Source: Streptacidiphilus anmyonensis (GTDB lineage Bacteria > Actinomycetota > Actinomycetes > Streptomycetales > Streptomycetaceae). From it: a DNA stretch of 64,000 bases. The stretch covers positions 246,025 to 310,024 of the forward strand of contig NZ_BBPQ01000001.1 in assembly GCF_000787855.1 (NCBI RefSeq), given 5' to 3'. The notes beneath the pieces were generated by a model that was given only the letters and a program-made list of their open reading frames with translations, did not search any database and was not told where the DNA came from. A program made the translations under genes and the position numbers. Shown piece by piece: positions 153 to 5,312 of the stretch (the stretch's first letter is position 1; the number at the start of each line of letters is the position of its first letter).

Positions 153-3077
153 CTACAGCAGGCCGTCCCAGAACTGCTCCAGGACCACGGCCCACCAGTT
201 CTCCGGCGAGGCCAGCGCCGCCGGGTCGATGGCGTTGACCTCGTTCTGGAAGTCGGTCGTCCAGCGGCCCGCCTGCTCCTGGGTCAGGCCGTAGCGGAAG
301 CGCCACAGCCGCCCCAGAACAGCGAGGCAGCGGACGAACTGCGGCAGGCCGGTGTTCACGAAGCGCGGCTGCGCCCCCTCCGGACCGGCCGGCTGCCCCG
401 GCGTCCCCAGATCGACCGCGACGATCGCGTTCGTGCCGTACTGGACGCAGAGCTGTCGCCCGTAGTCGTTGCCGACGACGAGGTACGTGCCCGCGTCCGG
501 ACCGGCGGCCAGACCGCGCTCCGCGGCCAGCTCCGCCAAGGTCGGGATCGGCCGGCCGGGCTGCGCCTGCGCCCAGAAGAACGGACCGAAGTCACGCGGC
601 AGGCCCGCCCAGGCCAGCGTCGACTGGACCTCCGGCGGCACCCCCGCCCGCGAGACCGCCTGCTGCTCGAAGCGGAACAGGTTCTGGTCGCCGAACGCCG
701 CCTGCAACTCCTGGGCGAGCGCCTGCGGCGGCGGCACCGGGGCCGGTTGCGCGGCCGGCGCGAGCGGCGCCTTCGAGGACGCGATCGGCGCCGGACCGGC
801 GGCGTGGGTGTGCAGCTCACGCAGGTGCTCCAGCAGGTGGTCGACCCCGCGCCGACGCGCCGCGGCCTCCCGCCCGTACGGGGCGGTGTGCGTGATCCGC
901 ACGTTCGGCCACGCCTCCTTGACCATCCGCGCGCAGTAGCCCGCAGGCAGGTCGCAGCACTCCAGCTCGGTGTGCAGCTCCAGCACCTGCTCCGGCGGCA
1001 CGTTCAGACGCCGCACCTCCTGCAGGATCTGCCACTCCGGGTGCGGCTGGCCGAGCGCGGAGCGCTGGATCACCTGCTGCTCCGAGCCGTCCGGGCCCCG
1101 GTAGCGCAGCACGGCCATGTAGCCGGGCCCGACCGTCGGGACACCGGGCGCGGGCGCGGGCGCTCCGACCGGCGCCCCGGGCTGCACGGGCCCGGACTGA
1201 CCGCCGAAGGACGCCCCGGGCGGGGGCGGGGGCATGCCGGGGCCACCCAGCGGCGCACCCGGCGGGGGCGGCGGAGGCATCCCCGGACCACCCATCGGCA
1301 CACCCGGCGAAGCCGGCATGCCCGGAGGCGGCGGGGGCATGCCCGGGCCGCCCAGCGGCGCACCCGGGGGCGGCGGCGGAACCGCCGCGCCCCCCAACGG
1401 GCCGGGCGGAGGAGGAGGCGGCACACCGGGCCCACCCAACGGCGCGCCCGGAGGCGGCGGGGGAACCCCCGGTCCACCGACCGGAGCCGCAGGGGCACCC
1501 GGCGCACCGGGCGCGCCGGGGCGGCCGGGAACGCTGCCCGGGGTCGCGAACATCGTCGGCGCGAAATCCAGACCCTCGGCCTGCAGCCCGCCCATCATGC
1601 CCGGCGGGGGCGGCGGCACACCGGGCCCGCCCAGCGGACCACCCGGAGGCGGCGGAGGCATCCCCGGACCACCCGCCGGCATGCCCGGCACCCCTGGCAT
1701 CCCCGGCACTCCCGGCGGAGGCGGTGGCATGCCGGGCCCTCCGAGCGGAGCGCCCGGAGGGGGCGGAGGCACCCCCGGACCGCCCAGCGGTCCAGGCGGC
1801 GGAGGCGGCGGCACACCGGGGCCGCCCAGCGGAGCACCGGGAGCGCCCGGCACACCCGGGGCGCCCGGACGACCGGGAACACTCCCCGGAGTCGCGAACA
1901 TCGTCGGCGCGTAGTCCAGCCCCTCGGCCTGCGGCCCGCCCATCACACCCGGCGGGGGCGGCGGCACACCGGGCCCGCCCATCGGCACACCCGGAGGCGG
2001 CGGAGGCATCCCCGGACCACCCAGCAGATCAGCGGGCGTCCCCGGGGCGCCCGGCATGCCCGGCACTCCGGGCGGCGGAGGCGGCGGCATGCCGGGACCG
2101 CCCAGCGGGCCACCGGGGAACGGCTGGCCACCCGGCAGACCCGGGGGCGGCGGAGGCATGCCCGGAACGCCCATCGGCGCACCTGGCGCCGGGGCGGCTG
2201 CGTTCGCGCCCGGGAACGGCTCGGCGACCGGCCCACCGGGCGGAGGCGGAGGGGTTCCGGGCACGCCCTGCTGCGCGGGCACGCCCACAGGCGCGCCCGC
2301 CGCGGGCGGGAAGCCGTACGAGCCGGACGCCACGGCGCCTTCCTGCGGGAAGCCGTAGCCGCCGCCCGAGCCGGGCGCCTGCCCGGGCTGCGGGTAGCCG
2401 TAACTTCCAGCGGCCGCCGGAGCAGCGGCGGAGCCCTGCGGATACCCGTACCCCGGCGTACCGGCACCGGCCGAGCCGGGCCCGGCGTGGGCCTCGGACG
2501 ACGACGGCGCGAACGGCGATCCGCCGTCAGACGCGGACACGGACTCGGACGTGGACGCAGGCACTGGCGCAGGTGCGGCCGCCGGCGCGGGCTCGCTCGG
2601 ATGCGGGACGGGCGTCGGCGGCGCGAGCATCGTCGGCACCTCGGCCGGCGGACCCGCGGAGACCGGCGGGGCCACCTGGAGGCTCGCCGCCTCCTCCTCG
2701 CGGGCCCGGGCCGCGGCCTCCTCCAGCCACTGCGGCGGGCTGAGCAGGAAGGACGTCGCCTCGACGAGATCCCGGTCCCCGGTCACCTGCAACGGCGACT
2801 GCGGCGTCGCGCCCGCCGGGCGGCCGTAGACCTCCTCGTAGCGCCGGACCACGTCGTTGATCGGCAGGGCGGGCCAGAGCGTGGTCGCGCCCGTCTCCCG
2901 GGCGATCACCATCCGTGCCGCGCCGCCGTCCGAGGACGGACCGTCGGTGCGGTCGACCGCCCAGGCCACGAAGCCCAGGTCGAACTCGCGCACGCGCACC
3001 TCGCGGCGCAGCCACGCGGGCGCCCCGGCGTTGATCCATTCCTCGGCGCGCTGCTGCGCCTCCGCGTACGTCACCAC
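153..3077 (-). CDS. Multidomain protein: Imm35/YrhB-like domain, long Pro/Gly-rich linker, deaminase-fold domain, SUKH-4 immunity domain
   Basis: 974 residues. Residues 1 to about 115 resemble the YrhB/Imm35 immunity family. Residues about 120-645 are low-complexity Pro/Gly/Ala repeats (GGPGMPPPPPG type). Residues about 650-760 form a compact domain with a deaminase-like zinc signature: H679-P-E681, then C707/C708 and C715 in CCDLPAGYC. Residues about 790-974 resemble SUKH-4 immunity proteins (core around TYLVVGNDYGRQLCVQYG). Such zinc motifs are typical of nucleic-acid or nucleotide deaminase toxin domains, possibly the XOO_2897-type, but the exact family is uncertain. No signal peptide or membrane segment is visible, so a cytoplasmic protein is inferred. 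The next gene upstream (3091) is on the same strand with a 13-nt gap, so the two are probably cotranscribed. The linker contains two near-identical EGLD(Y/F)APTMFATPGSV segments. Substrate and biological role are unknown. Confidence 0.75.
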   Translation of the reverse strand: MVTYAEAQQRAEEWINAGAPAWLRREVRVREFDLGFVAWAVDRTDGPSSDGGAARMVIARETGATTLWPALPINDVVRRYEEVYGRPAGATPQSPLQVTGDRDLVEATSFLLSPPQWLEEAAARAREEEAASLQVAPPVSAGPPAEVPTMLAPPTPVPHPSEPAPAAAPAPVPASTSESVSASDGGSPFAPSSSEAHAGPGSAGAGTPGYGYPQGSAAAPAAAGSYGYPQPGQAPGSGGGYGFPQEGAVASGSYGFPPAAGAPVGVPAQQGVPGTPPPPPGGPVAEPFPGANAAAPAPGAPMGVPGMPPPPPGLPGGQPFPGGPLGGPGMPPPPPPGVPGMPGAPGTPADLLGGPGMPPPPPGVPMGGPGVPPPPPGVMGGPQAEGLDYAPTMFATPGSVPGRPGAPGVPGAPGAPLGGPGVPPPPPPGPLGGPGVPPPPPGAPLGGPGMPPPPPGVPGMPGVPGMPAGGPGMPPPPPGGPLGGPGVPPPPPGMMGGLQAEGLDFAPTMFATPGSVPGRPGAPGAPGAPAAPVGGPGVPPPPPGAPLGGPGVPPPPPPGPLGGAAVPPPPPGAPLGGPGMPPPPPGMPASPGVPMGGPGMPPPPPPGAPLGGPGMPPPPPGASFGGQSGPVQPGAPVGAPAPAPGVPTVGPGYMAVLRYRGPDGSEQQVIQRSALGQPHPEWQILQEVRRLNVPPEQVLELHTELECCDLPAGYCARMVKEAWPNVRITHTAPYGREAAARRRGVDHLLEHLRELHTHAAGPAPIASSKAPLAPAAQPAPVPPPQALAQELQAAFGDQNLFRFEQQAVSRAGVPPEVQSTLAWAGLPRDFGPFFWAQAQPGRPIPTLAELAAERGLAAGPDAGTYLVVGNDYGRQLCVQYGTNAIVAVDLGTPGQPAGPEGAQPRFVNTGLPQFVRCLAVLGRLWRFRYGLTQEQAGRWTTDFQNEVNAIDPAALASPENWWAVVLEQFWDGLL

Positions 3078-3090
3078 GTCGACGCCCCCC

Positions 3091-4119
3091 TCAACCCTTC
3101 ACCGGGACGGCGCGCGCGAAGCCGCCGTCCACCATCAGTTCGGCCACTGTCTGCAGCTCCGGCGGGCTGCCCGCCAGCCGGAGCAGGAACGCGTCGAAGT
3201 CGTCGCCGCAGGGCAGCAGCAGGCGCTCGCAGCGCTGCTGCGGCGTCAGGGACGGGTCGCCGTCGTCGCGCGCGTCGTCGTAGGGCAGGAACCAGACCGT
3301 GCCGATCCGGTCGCCGCGGACCTTGACCGCCAGCAGGCCGCCCTGGACGAAGCCGACGCCGAGGTAGTCCTTGGTGATGTGGTCGCGCAGGCACTTGTTG
3401 ACGTATGCGAGGTCCGCCGTGGACCGCTCCGTGGGCAGCCCGAAGAAGGGCTGGTCCACGAGGATGCCCAGCTCGGTGTCGAGCCCGAGGCCCTTGGGGG
3501 CGCGGCCGCCGGCCGCCTTCAGGAAGGTCCGGTAGGGCCCGGGCAGGGTGTAGCCGAGGGCCTCCTCGACGGCCTGCAAGCGCTGCTCGATCTCCTCCGG
3601 GCTGGGCGGCGGGGCGGCCTCGCCGCCGTCGCCGCCCTCTCCGGCCTCCGCCACGCCGGGGAGGGCGAAGTGGACGGGGCGTCGCTCCTGGAGCGGACGC
3701 GTGCCGCGCTTGCCGTGGTCCGCGCGTGAGCCGGCCAGGCCGCCGTGGTGCCGCAGCAGCGCCTTGACGTCGACGGGGACCAGCTCGAGTCGACGGCTGC
3801 CCGGCGTCGCCGGGTTGACGGAGTGGTGCCAGGTCCAGCCGGCGGGTGTGCCAACCGGGCTCTCCACGTCCGCCCACAGCTCGTGCCCGTCGGCGCGCAG
3901 CGCGGCGTTGGCGGAGACGTAGTCGGTGAGCCGCAGCTCGTCGACGCCGAACCCCTCGGGTGGGTCCGCGACCTCCGCCGCGGCTCGGGCGTACGGGGAG
4001 AAGTCGGGGCGACCGTCCGCGTCGACCCTCACCCCGCCCGGGTACTGCTGCGCGCGCAGCGGATCGGGAAAGTGCACGACCTGCCCGGCGTAGGCCGCGT
4101 TGGGCCGACCTGTCGTCAT
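3091..4119 (-). CDS. WHH/HNH-type nuclease domain fused to a SMI1/KNR4 (SUKH-1) immunity domain
   Basis: 342 residues. The N-terminal part (about 25-130) matches the HNH/Endonuclease VII toxin layout: YPGGVRVDADGRPDF opening, DY at 66-67, W97-H98-H99 in GWTWHHS, the ELVPVD strand and RHHGG at 123-127. Residues about 175-340 are a SMI1/KNR4-type SUKH domain (PSPEEIEQRLQAVEEALG, LPGPYRTFLKAAGG). In polymorphic toxin systems WHH domains are DNases and SUKH proteins neutralise such nucleases; here both lie in one chain, which implies a self-restrained nuclease or a decoy. No export signal is seen. It is the first gene of a leftward pair and is divergent from the YwqJ-type deaminase gene at 4337. 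ATG start at 4119. Confidence 0.8.
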   Translation of the reverse strand: MTTGRPNAAYAGQVVHFPDPLRAQQYPGGVRVDADGRPDFSPYARAAAEVADPPEGFGVDELRLTDYVSANAALRADGHELWADVESPVGTPAGWTWHHSVNPATPGSRRLELVPVDVKALLRHHGGLAGSRADHGKRGTRPLQERRPVHFALPGVAEAGEGGDGGEAAPPPSPEEIEQRLQAVEEALGYTLPGPYRTFLKAAGGRAPKGLGLDTELGILVDQPFFGLPTERSTADLAYVNKCLRDHITKDYLGVGFVQGGLLAVKVRGDRIGTVWFLPYDDARDDGDPSLTPQQRCERLLLPCGDDFDAFLLRLAGSPPELQTVAELMVDGGFARAVPVKG

Positions 4120-4336
4120 GGAGTTTGCCCCCTGCTGGAACTGACTGCCGCGCCCAAGCCTAGGGGCTCACCGGCCCGTGGGGATCTCCCCGGTCGGCCG
4201 GAAGGCGGGGGGAGGGCGGTCCGCGCGCACCGGTCCGTCGTCGAACGAGACCCCGACTTCAGTATCTGCGTACGGATTTGGCAGTCTGATCCACAGCACG
4301 TTGACGGGGGTTAACGGGGGAAGGGGACTACCGTTC

Positions 4337-4804
4337 ATGGAGATCATGCAGCACCAGAACAGACAGGCGCCGGCACCGCTGCTGCGCCACCGCCGGGACA
4401 GCCTGATGCCGATCGTCGCCGCGGCGCTGTCGGTGCGGGGTGATACCTATACGCACGTGAGCGAGAAGGGCGGGGCCCCGCAGCTCCACCCGCTCGTGGA
4501 CGAGTTCCTGGCCGGGCTGCCCGTCGGGCAGTTGGAGCGGTTCACCGGGCGCTGCCCGGAGGCCGTGCTGCTGTCCCAGTTCCTGGACCACGCCGAGTCC
4601 GGGCGCTCCGGCCGGGCCGCGCGGAAGTCCTTCGGCGAGGGGGAGGCCCGAAAGGCGCTGCGCGGGGCGAAGATGACGACGGTCCGGATCCGCGAGGAGG
4701 GCGATCCGGCCCACGGCACCCACCAACCGCCGTGCCGCAGCTGCGAGCCGTTGCTGGCCCACTTCGGGGTCAGGACCATCTCGCTGCGCCCGAGGAAGAA
4801 GTGA
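4337..4804 (+). CDS. YwqJ-type putative deaminase
   Basis: 155 residues. The zinc-binding deaminase signature is intact: C73-P-E75 (GRCPEAVLLS) and C133-R-S-C136 (PPCRSC). This matches the YwqJ-related toxin deaminase family. The start was set to the ATG at 4337 because GGGGGAAGGGGA lies just upstream and because family members begin at about MxxMQH; the in-frame upstream extension looks non-coding. The protein lacks a secretion domain, so it is the bare catalytic domain. The SUKH-3 gene follows after 19 nt, giving an effector/immunity-like pair. The substrate (nucleic acid, nucleotide or other) cannot be read from the sequence. Confidence 0.85.
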   Translation: MEIMQHQNRQAPAPLLRHRRDSLMPIVAAALSVRGDTYTHVSEKGGAPQLHPLVDEFLAGLPVGQLERFTGRCPEAVLLSQFLDHAESGRSGRAARKSFGEGEARKALRGAKMTTVRIREEGDPAHGTHQPPCRSCEPLLAHFGVRTISLRPRKK

Positions 4805-4823
4805 CGAGGGGAGGTCGGACACC

Positions 4824-5312
4824 ATGCAGGCACGTTTCCCTGCGGACGTCGCGTCCGCTCTCGCCAAGGCGGGCTGGTACCCGGACCGGCGACGCGTGGC
4901 CACCGCGGAGTCCTGGGCGGAGCAGCTGTCCGCCTACGTCTCCCCGGAGGGCCACCGCCACACCGTCTTCCCCGCCGCGCTGGAGGCCTGGGCGGAGTTC
5001 GGCGAGATCGGCGTCTCGCTGGACGGCGCCGGGGTCGAGGTCGCCCGCACGCCCTTCGTCATCGACCCGCTGCGAGGTCTCCACCAACCCCGCACGCTTT
5101 CCGACCTGGGCCGCGCGCTGGAGCTGCCGGTGGCCCCTCTGGGCGAGGAACGGGAGGGTGCGGCGCTGCTGGCGATCGACGCGGTCGGCCGCGTCTACAG
5201 CCTCGACCACGCGGGCGAGTGGTTCCTCGGGCACACGATGGACCAGGCGCTCACCGTGCTGATCAACGGCCTGCGGGCGGAGCGGCTCCGGTTCCTGACC
5301 GAGGCGCTGTAA
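4824..5312 (+). CDS. SUKH-3 family immunity protein
   Basis: 162 residues, cytoplasmic. The pattern (AGWYPDRR, AEQLSAYVSPEG, FPAALEAWAEFG, DPLRG, then LGRALELPVAPLGEE and VYSLDHAGEWFLG) is that of the SUKH-3 branch of the SMI1/KNR4 superfamily. SUKH proteins are usually immunity factors for nuclease or deaminase toxins. It follows the YwqJ-type deaminase after 19 nt and has GAGGGGAGG ahead of its ATG, so it is cotranscribed and is the natural partner of that deaminase. Confidence 0.85.
   Translation: MQARFPADVASALAKAGWYPDRRRVATAESWAEQLSAYVSPEGHRHTVFPAALEAWAEFGEIGVSLDGAGVEVARTPFVIDPLRGLHQPRTLSDLGRALELPVAPLGEEREGAALLAIDAVGRVYSLDHAGEWFLGHTMDQALTVLINGLRAERLRFLTEAL

What the first reader, a model, noticed from the sequence alone, without database searches (positions are those of the whole stretch)
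3091..4119. Nuclease and its SUKH antidote fused in one chain
WHH motif (W97-H98-H99, RHHGG at 123-127) and SUKH-1 domain lie in a 342-residue protein. If the HNH site is active, the fused SUKH must gate it. In the classical model immunity is a separate protein, so this is either an autoinhibited DNase released by a trigger or an inactive decoy.
Basis: partly seen in the sequence, partly recalled or inferred. Interest (0 to 1): 0.58.

Follow-up and report, generated by a model that had tools for sequence, protein, structure and literature searches.

The report
Core pseudo-nuclease fused to its antidote
A protein joining a toxin-type DNA-cutting domain to its usual antidote domain is kept by almost all Streptomyces relatives examined, but its cutting site lacks a key metal-holding residue, so it is more likely a tamed, inactive toxin doing a new job than a weapon held in check.

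Summary
The autoinhibited-DNase reading is not favoured. Unfused WHH toxins have a middle His before the final His-x-Gly; here that position is Lys in 81 of 81 aligned Streptomycetaceae rows. Fused proteins of two other families instead lack the first His of HH, 13 of 13 and 3 of 3. Eleven of eleven unfused WHH domains keep the middle His. The fusion is a core gene (242 of 249 Streptomycetaceae genomes) under purifying selection. It lies in a four-gene locus with two deaminase/SUKH units, same order and orientation in 58 of 58 loci with full flanks. In one genus it sits beside a type-VII-type toxin with an intact WHH tip and a separate SUKH-1. Best reading: a domesticated, probably catalytically dead nuclease-immunity fusion acting by binding. 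No activity was tested.

The parts
3091..4119 (-). WHH-SUKH-1 fusion gene, 342 aa
   Evidence: homologues
3733..3849 (-). WHH (HNH/Endo VII) core, residues 91-129
   Evidence: Pfam PF14414; same coordinates as the genome hit
3823..3828 (-). codons of H98 and H99
   Evidence: both invariant in 81 of 81 rows
3763..3765 (-). codon of K119, at the position of the middle His of unfused WHH toxins
3184..3588 (-). SUKH-1 domain, residues 178-312
   Evidence: Pfam PF09346
153..3077 (-). next gene, 13 bp after the fusion's stop: N-terminal domain without a Pfam match, Pro/Gly-rich middle, XOO_2897-type deaminase, SUKH-4 (974 aa)
828..1130 (-). XOO_2897-type deaminase domain, residues 650-750
   Evidence: PF14440, E 3.1e-34
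174..716 (-). SUKH-4 domain, residues 788-968
   Evidence: PF14435, E 1.5e-48
4178..4804 (+). divergent YwqJ-type deaminase ORF (domain at about 4382-4768; the true start may lie further in)
   Evidence: PF14431, E 1.2e-28
4824..5312 (+). SUKH-3 immunity-type gene after the YwqJ deaminase
   Evidence: PF14433, E 4.5e-46

Best explanation
The gene encodes a domesticated toxin-immunity fusion whose nuclease half has most likely lost metal-dependent DNA cleavage. Proposed origin (inferred): an ancestral type-VII-type polymorphic toxin locus held a WHH nuclease tip and its separate SUKH-1 immunity gene; a copy of the tip was joined to SUKH-1, had no delivery domain and then lost one ligand-type His (Lys at 119 in Streptomycetaceae; Ala, Val or Thr at 98 in two other families). 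Proposed function (inferred): an intracellular binding protein. The retained WHH surface binds DNA and/or live WHH-type nucleases, and the SUKH domain binds nuclease or deaminase partners. It would act as a standing, nucleoid-placed immunity or assembly factor for the neighbouring deaminase/SUKH modules, not as a gated DNase. Shown: architecture, missing residue, core conservation, purifying selection, locus order, an intact unfused relative next door in one genus. Not shown: lack of activity, any binding partner, any phenotype.
For: K119 in 81 of 81 rows; pattern H-H-K-H-H in 157 of 158 Streptomycetaceae loci, the remaining one not matched by the pattern, genomes overlapping. Profile-profile alignment of fused and unfused groups (99.7% probability) puts K119 on the invariant His of the unfused toxins. 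Fused proteins of family f3 lack H98 in 13 of 13 and of f87 in 3 of 3. Unfused domains: middle His in 11 of 11; all three ligand-type positions His in 10 of 11, the other (L211) with Asn at position 98. Fused and unfused proteins fall on two sides of one branch, support 79/89. Core gene: 242 of 249 genomes, 16 of 17 genera. Median dN/dS 0.10 (WHH), 0.24 (linker), 0.13 (SUKH) in 60 pairs drawn from 1632. No second WHH domain at E<=0.001 in the window's own genome. A WHH toxin paper states, from a predicted model, that Zn is held by three His as in ColE7 and that this Zn is essential in the superfamily (PMC13224477, passages). Precedent: teneurin GHH domains lack the conserved His, are called inactive, and nucleic-acid binding is suggested for them (PMC3482391, passages).
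Against: H98, H99, H124 and H125 stay invariant together with K119 in Streptomycetaceae (81 of 81), more than a wholly dead site needs; an altered, still active site is not excluded. (One search pattern contained the RHH[GA]G stretch, so invariance at 123-127 in that set is partly by selection; residues 98, 99 and 119 were not in the patterns.) Lys occurs in the motif name of another HNH-type toxin, Tox-DHNNK; its place in the site is recalled, not tested. The tree rests on a short domain with long branches and 13 of 27 inner branches open. Only about two independent losses can be argued. The structure model was too poor to use (mean pLDDT 43.7). DNA or partner binding has no direct support here.
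Confidence: 0.62

Rival explanations
1. Autoinhibited DNase: the WHH domain is active and the SUKH domain in cis holds it off until a trigger frees it. Lys119 would take part in a changed metal or phosphate site.
For: H98, H99, K119, H124 and H125 are all invariant in 81 of 81 rows and the domain is under strong purifying selection. SUKH is a listed immunity partner of Tox-WHH (PMC3482391 table), and separate SMI1/KNR4 genes follow the WHH genes in L070, L071 and L072.
Against: The middle His is absent in 81 of 81 fused Streptomycetaceae rows and H98 in 16 of 16 fused proteins of the two other families, while 11 of 11 unfused domains keep the middle His. Pfam finds no protease or sensor domain in the window protein.
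Confidence: 0.2
2. Part of an active self-directed system: two catalytically intact deaminases with SUKH partners and a WHH-SUKH-1 scaffold act on the cell's own or invading nucleic acid (defence, programmed death or mutagenesis).
For: All four genes in the same order and orientation in 58 of 58 full-flank loci. Deaminase-type motifs are conserved at 97% or more: H-P-E and C-x6-C in the XOO_2897 type (67 loci with a match, of 80) and C-x-E and P-C-x-x-C in the YwqJ type (77 of 80).
Against: No PADLOC match for the two proteins scanned. In four family-f3 loci the fusion stands without the deaminases within 17 kb, so it can be kept without them. No functional evidence. That these motifs are the catalytic ones is recalled.
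Confidence: 0.12
3. Passive remnant: a decaying toxin cassette with no function.
For: One genome of the window's genus has a copy in pieces (G007, completeness 76); genus g2 lacks the gene in 3 of 3 genomes drawn.
Against: Median dN/dS 0.10-0.13 in the two domains; 242 of 249 genomes; the most conserved of the pieces compared in the locus, 47% of positions at 97% or more against 27-40%.
Confidence: 0.05

Closest known systems
Tox-WHH polymorphic toxins (Pfam PF14414), e.g. the Rhs toxins in PDB 8bd1 and 8h8a-c
   Same: The module (from about residue 6 to 139) aligns with unfused WHH toxins at 99.7% probability; W97, H99, H124 and G127 are shared.
   Different: No delivery domain, middle His replaced by Lys, immunity domain in the same chain, fixed core gene instead of a variable tip.
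SUKH-1 (SMI1/KNR4) immunity proteins
   Same: Pfam SUKH-1 over cut-off; SUKH-1 genes sit directly beside unfused WHH domains in L070, L071, L072, L205 and L058.
   Different: There a separate gene; here C-terminal in one chain with its toxin type.
Teneurin/Odd Oz inactive Tox-GHH domains (animals)
   Same: A toxin nuclease domain without its conserved His, kept for another role (PMC3482391, passages).
   Different: Different HNH clade, animal adhesion receptors, no SUKH.
SUKH fusions to Tox-GHH and other domains
   Same: A SUKH domain fused to a toxin domain in one protein (PMC3482391 table).
   Different: Given as occasional; a WHH-SUKH-1 core family of Streptomycetaceae is not named in the passages I saw.

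Membership tests
Tox-WHH nuclease (PF14414) | Profile match over curated cut-off | tested here: met
   40.2 bits against 25.1
Tox-WHH nuclease (PF14414) | W-H-H triplet (motif given as 'WHH, L, H, HxG' in PMC3482391) | tested here: met
   W97 H98 H99 in 81 of 81 Streptomycetaceae rows; H98 lost in f3 and f87
Tox-WHH nuclease (PF14414) | Conserved H between L and HxG | tested here: not met
   K119 in 81 of 81; His in 11 of 11 unfused domains
Tox-WHH nuclease (PF14414) | HxG | tested here: met
   H124-H125-G126 in the window protein; position 126 is Gly in 73% of 30 rows
Tox-WHH nuclease (PF14414) | Nuclease activity | not testable with these tools
   needs the bench
SUKH-1 immunity domain (PF09346) | Profile match over curated cut-off | tested here: met
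   39.5 bits against 25.4
SUKH-1 immunity domain (PF09346) | Neutralises a toxin | not testable with these tools
   needs the bench
Polymorphic toxin (secreted effector) | N-terminal delivery domain ahead of the toxin tip | tested here: not met
   The chain begins with the WHH module; Pfam finds no delivery domain
Polymorphic toxin (secreted effector) | Separate adjacent immunity gene for the tip | tested here: not met
   SUKH-1 is in the same chain; the next gene is a deaminase-SUKH-4 protein
Known anti-phage defence protein | Match to a PADLOC model | tested here: not met
   0 families for the fusion and the deaminase-SUKH-4 protein; the YwqJ and SUKH-3 proteins were not scanned

The most novel reading that the evidence does not exclude
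Streptomycetaceae carry, as a core chromosomal locus, a domesticated toxin arsenal turned inward: two active nucleic-acid deaminases kept under SUKH control and organised by a catalytically dead WHH-SUKH-1 protein that places them on DNA, serving defence, programmed hyphal death or controlled mutagenesis.
Probability: 0.13. Interest if true: 0.8.

Novelty: new variant of a known kind. Interest (0 to 1): 0.52.

Why it matters
If right, it is a bacterial counterpart of the teneurin case: a weapon's nuclease tip joined to its own antidote, disarmed, and fixed as a core gene across a whole family. It gives a natural series (intact unfused toxin, fused copy with Lys, fused copy without the first His) for asking how toxins are tamed. 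It also points to a conserved deaminase/SUKH locus, for which I found no experimental study in the searches, in the main antibiotic-producing bacteria.

Tried and rejected
Structure: AlphaFold2 with 42 rows (the window protein and 41 loci of the search for related loci) gave mean pLDDT 43.7, pTM 0.29, so no fold search was run; only the strand-strand-helix order at 95-124 was seen.

PDB sequence search with the window protein alone gave one hit at E 0.46. Unfused relatives gave the Rhs toxins 8bd1 and 8h8a-c; the fused profile matched 8bd1 only weakly, E 0.002.

NCBIfam and PADLOC gave no match for the fusion or the deaminase-SUKH-4 protein. The idea that the fusion is immunity for a WHH toxin of the same genome is not supported in the window's genome (one WHH hit, the fusion itself).

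Rows dropped or unresolved: L210 (G885, a sixth PF14414 hit) matched none of my motif patterns and is left out of the unfused count. L209 and L205 are one place, as are L229 and L231. Downstream genes of L208, L211, L212 and L213 were not looked at. Of the seven records, H1, H3 and H7 were used as unfused controls, H2 is the fused plasmid copy (same place as H8), and H4, H5 and H6 were not examined. Some genomes score well below the rest (for instance G352, G457, G491) and were not examined.

The C-terminus of the 1469-aa protein beside the fusion in L204 looked NucA-like to my eye (a DKGH stretch), but Pfam gave no match; not used.

Papers: two 2011 papers on SUKH and on deaminases, looked up from recalled identifiers, are not held, nor is the RhsP paper; whether they describe this locus could not be checked. 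Searches for the locus in print: (listings). None of the listed titles describes it; of those papers I saw passages of PMC3482391 only. Passages of PMC7033585, PMC13224477, PMC7170923 and PMC12724144 were also seen. No paper was read whole.

Full report
What is there. The ORF at 3091-4119 lies on the minus strand and encodes 342 aa. Pfam finds WHH at residues 91-129 and SUKH-1 at 178-312, both over their curated cut-offs; the other three listed families (Colicin-DNase, SUKH_6, SUKH_5) overlap these and stay below theirs. The window's genome holds one WHH match, the fusion itself, and ten SUKH-1 matches, nine over the cut-off, the fusion among them.

The neighbourhood. Thirteen bases after the stop comes a 974-aa gene with an XOO_2897-type deaminase and SUKH-4, a second toxin-immunity fusion. 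Divergently, 4178-4804 holds a YwqJ-type deaminase and 4824-5312 SUKH-3. Further out lie, among others, a GntR regulator, a histidine kinase and PEP carboxylase on one side and a TRCF (Mfd-type) protein on the other. Of 80 named-genome loci, 58 carry about 6 kb on both sides; all 58 have all four genes in one order and orientation. Of 13 further Streptomycetaceae loci (L040-L052), 12 have all four, with extra sequence inside the cluster in L049 and L052; L047 lacks the YwqJ/SUKH-3 pair within its 17 kb.

Distribution. 48 of 61 genomes of relatives and 242 of 249 Streptomycetaceae genomes in 16 of 17 genera, own genome counted in both. The seven misses are three of three genomes of genus g2 and four assemblies in 410 to 1650 contigs. 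Further: 13 of 14 genomes of family f3 and 3 of 35 of family f87. In a draw of 296 genomes of the class, 36 match: 28 Streptomycetaceae, two f87, one genome (G746) with WHH and SUKH in separate frames, and five weak SUKH-only matches. Contigs of two same-genus genomes (G006, G009) have the lengths of contigs of Streptacidiphilus melanogenes and S. jiangxiensis, whose proteins are 92% and 88% identical to the window's, so the window is probably a Streptacidiphilus. That f3 is Catenulisporaceae is my recall, from a genome size. In four f3 loci the fusion stands without the deaminases: next to the Mfd-type gene in all four, with PEP carboxylase on the other side in two.

The active site. PMC3482391 gives the Tox-WHH motif as 'WHH, L, H, HxG' (passages). 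PMC13224477 says, from a predicted model of a WHH toxin, that Zn is held by three His as in ColE7 and is essential in the superfamily (passages). In the window family the middle His is K119: 30 of 30 rows, 81 of 81, and 157 of 158 loci in a pattern search that overlaps those sets. The fused copies in genus g4 (two) and on a Streptomyces plasmid (one) also have Lys. In f3 the first His of HH is Ala, Val or Thr in 13 of 13, and the 119 position is His or Asn; in f87 it is Ala or Thr in 3 of 3, with His at 119. W97, H99, R123, H124, H125 and G127 are kept across the 25-row alignment, which has no f87 row; the f87 proteins have Leu or Arg at 125. Unfused WHH domains (P0003, P0004, L070, L071, L072, L205, L208, L211, L212, L213, L231) have the middle His in 11 of 11; L211 has Asn at position 98, the other ten His. 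A profile-profile alignment of the two groups puts K119 on that His. So every fused protein whose motif I could read lacks a ligand-type His that the unfused domains have, in two different ways. Which residue does what in the site is by analogy with colicin DNases, not tested. One pattern of the scan that gave the 80 named loci contained RHH[GA]G, so their invariance at 123-127 is partly by selection; 98, 99 and 119 were free.

Selection and ancestry. Median dN/dS (NG86), over 60 pairs drawn from 1632 with 86-97% protein identity, is 0.10 for the WHH part, 0.24 for the linker (59 pairs) and 0.13 for SUKH. Of the pieces compared, the fusion is the most conserved: 47% of positions at 97% or more (80 loci), against 40% (deaminase, 67), 37% (SUKH-4, 66), 30% (YwqJ, 77) and 27% (SUKH-3, 75); local alignment ends lower all of these. 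In the WHH tree fused and unfused proteins separate on one branch with 79/89 support and in 78% of bootstrap trees; the tree has long branches and 13 of 27 inner branches open.

An origin caught in place. In genus g4 (L058) an ORF weakly like WXG100 (below cut-off) is followed by a 2301-aa ORF with WXG100_2, Gln_amidase and a C-terminal WHH with all three His, then SUKH-1, then the fused WHH-SUKH-1 with Lys, then YwqJ deaminase, then SUKH-3. L057 shows the same order from the toxin's end onward. In f87 (L204) a fused gene with an N-terminal extension overlaps the end of a WXG100_2 protein by four bases. The core locus thus resembles a type-VII-type toxin locus without its delivery gene. Deaminase-type motifs stay conserved while the nuclease motif does not; reading these motifs as catalytic rests on recalled family knowledge.

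How it most likely works. Shown: architecture, missing residue, constraint, synteny, an intact unfused relative next door in one genus. Inferred: loss of cleavage, retained binding of DNA or nuclease partners, and an immunity or assembly role in the cytoplasm. A point mutant of another DNase toxin, YeeF-CT, described as its active-site mutant, still binds DNA, and its immunity protein is described as an exosite inhibitor that leaves DNA binding intact (PMC7033585, passages); a dead nuclease-immunity chain could therefore sit on DNA. The main counter-evidence is that H98, H99, H124 and H125 remain invariant in Streptomycetaceae, which leaves room for an altered active site.

Comparison. It is a SUKH-1 protein by profile, and a WHH domain by profile that fails one defining residue, so I do not file it as a working Tox-WHH nuclease. 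SUKH-toxin fusions and inactive toxin domains are both on record (PMC3482391, passages). I found no description of this core locus in the listings; two 2011 papers likely to mention it are not held.

Noticed in passing
window 153-3077 (-): Second toxin-immunity fusion: XOO_2897-type deaminase plus SUKH-4, with a long Pro/Gly-rich repeat middle and an N-terminal domain that has no Pfam match.
   Followed up: partly
window 4178-5312 (+): Divergent YwqJ-type deaminase and SUKH-3 pair, conserved with the fusion in 58 of 58 full-flank loci.
   Followed up: partly
L057 5934 onward, L058 10064 onward; window 2778-3077: The N-terminal domain of the window's deaminase protein recurs at the C-terminus of the SUKH-3 protein in genus g4: a shuffled, unnamed, perhaps immunity-like domain.
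   Followed up: partly
L058 473-10309: Genus g4 keeps a type-VII-type toxin ORF (WXG100_2, Gln_amidase, WHH with all three His) directly upstream of SUKH-1 and the fused WHH-SUKH-1.
   Followed up: yes
L204 6314-12651: In family f87 the fused gene has an N-terminal extension with two CxxC pairs and overlaps the end of a 1469-aa WXG100_2 protein with a DKGH stretch.
   Followed up: partly
genomes G014, G030, G355 (genus g2): The one Streptomycetaceae genus in the draw without the gene, 3 of 3 genomes.
   Followed up: no
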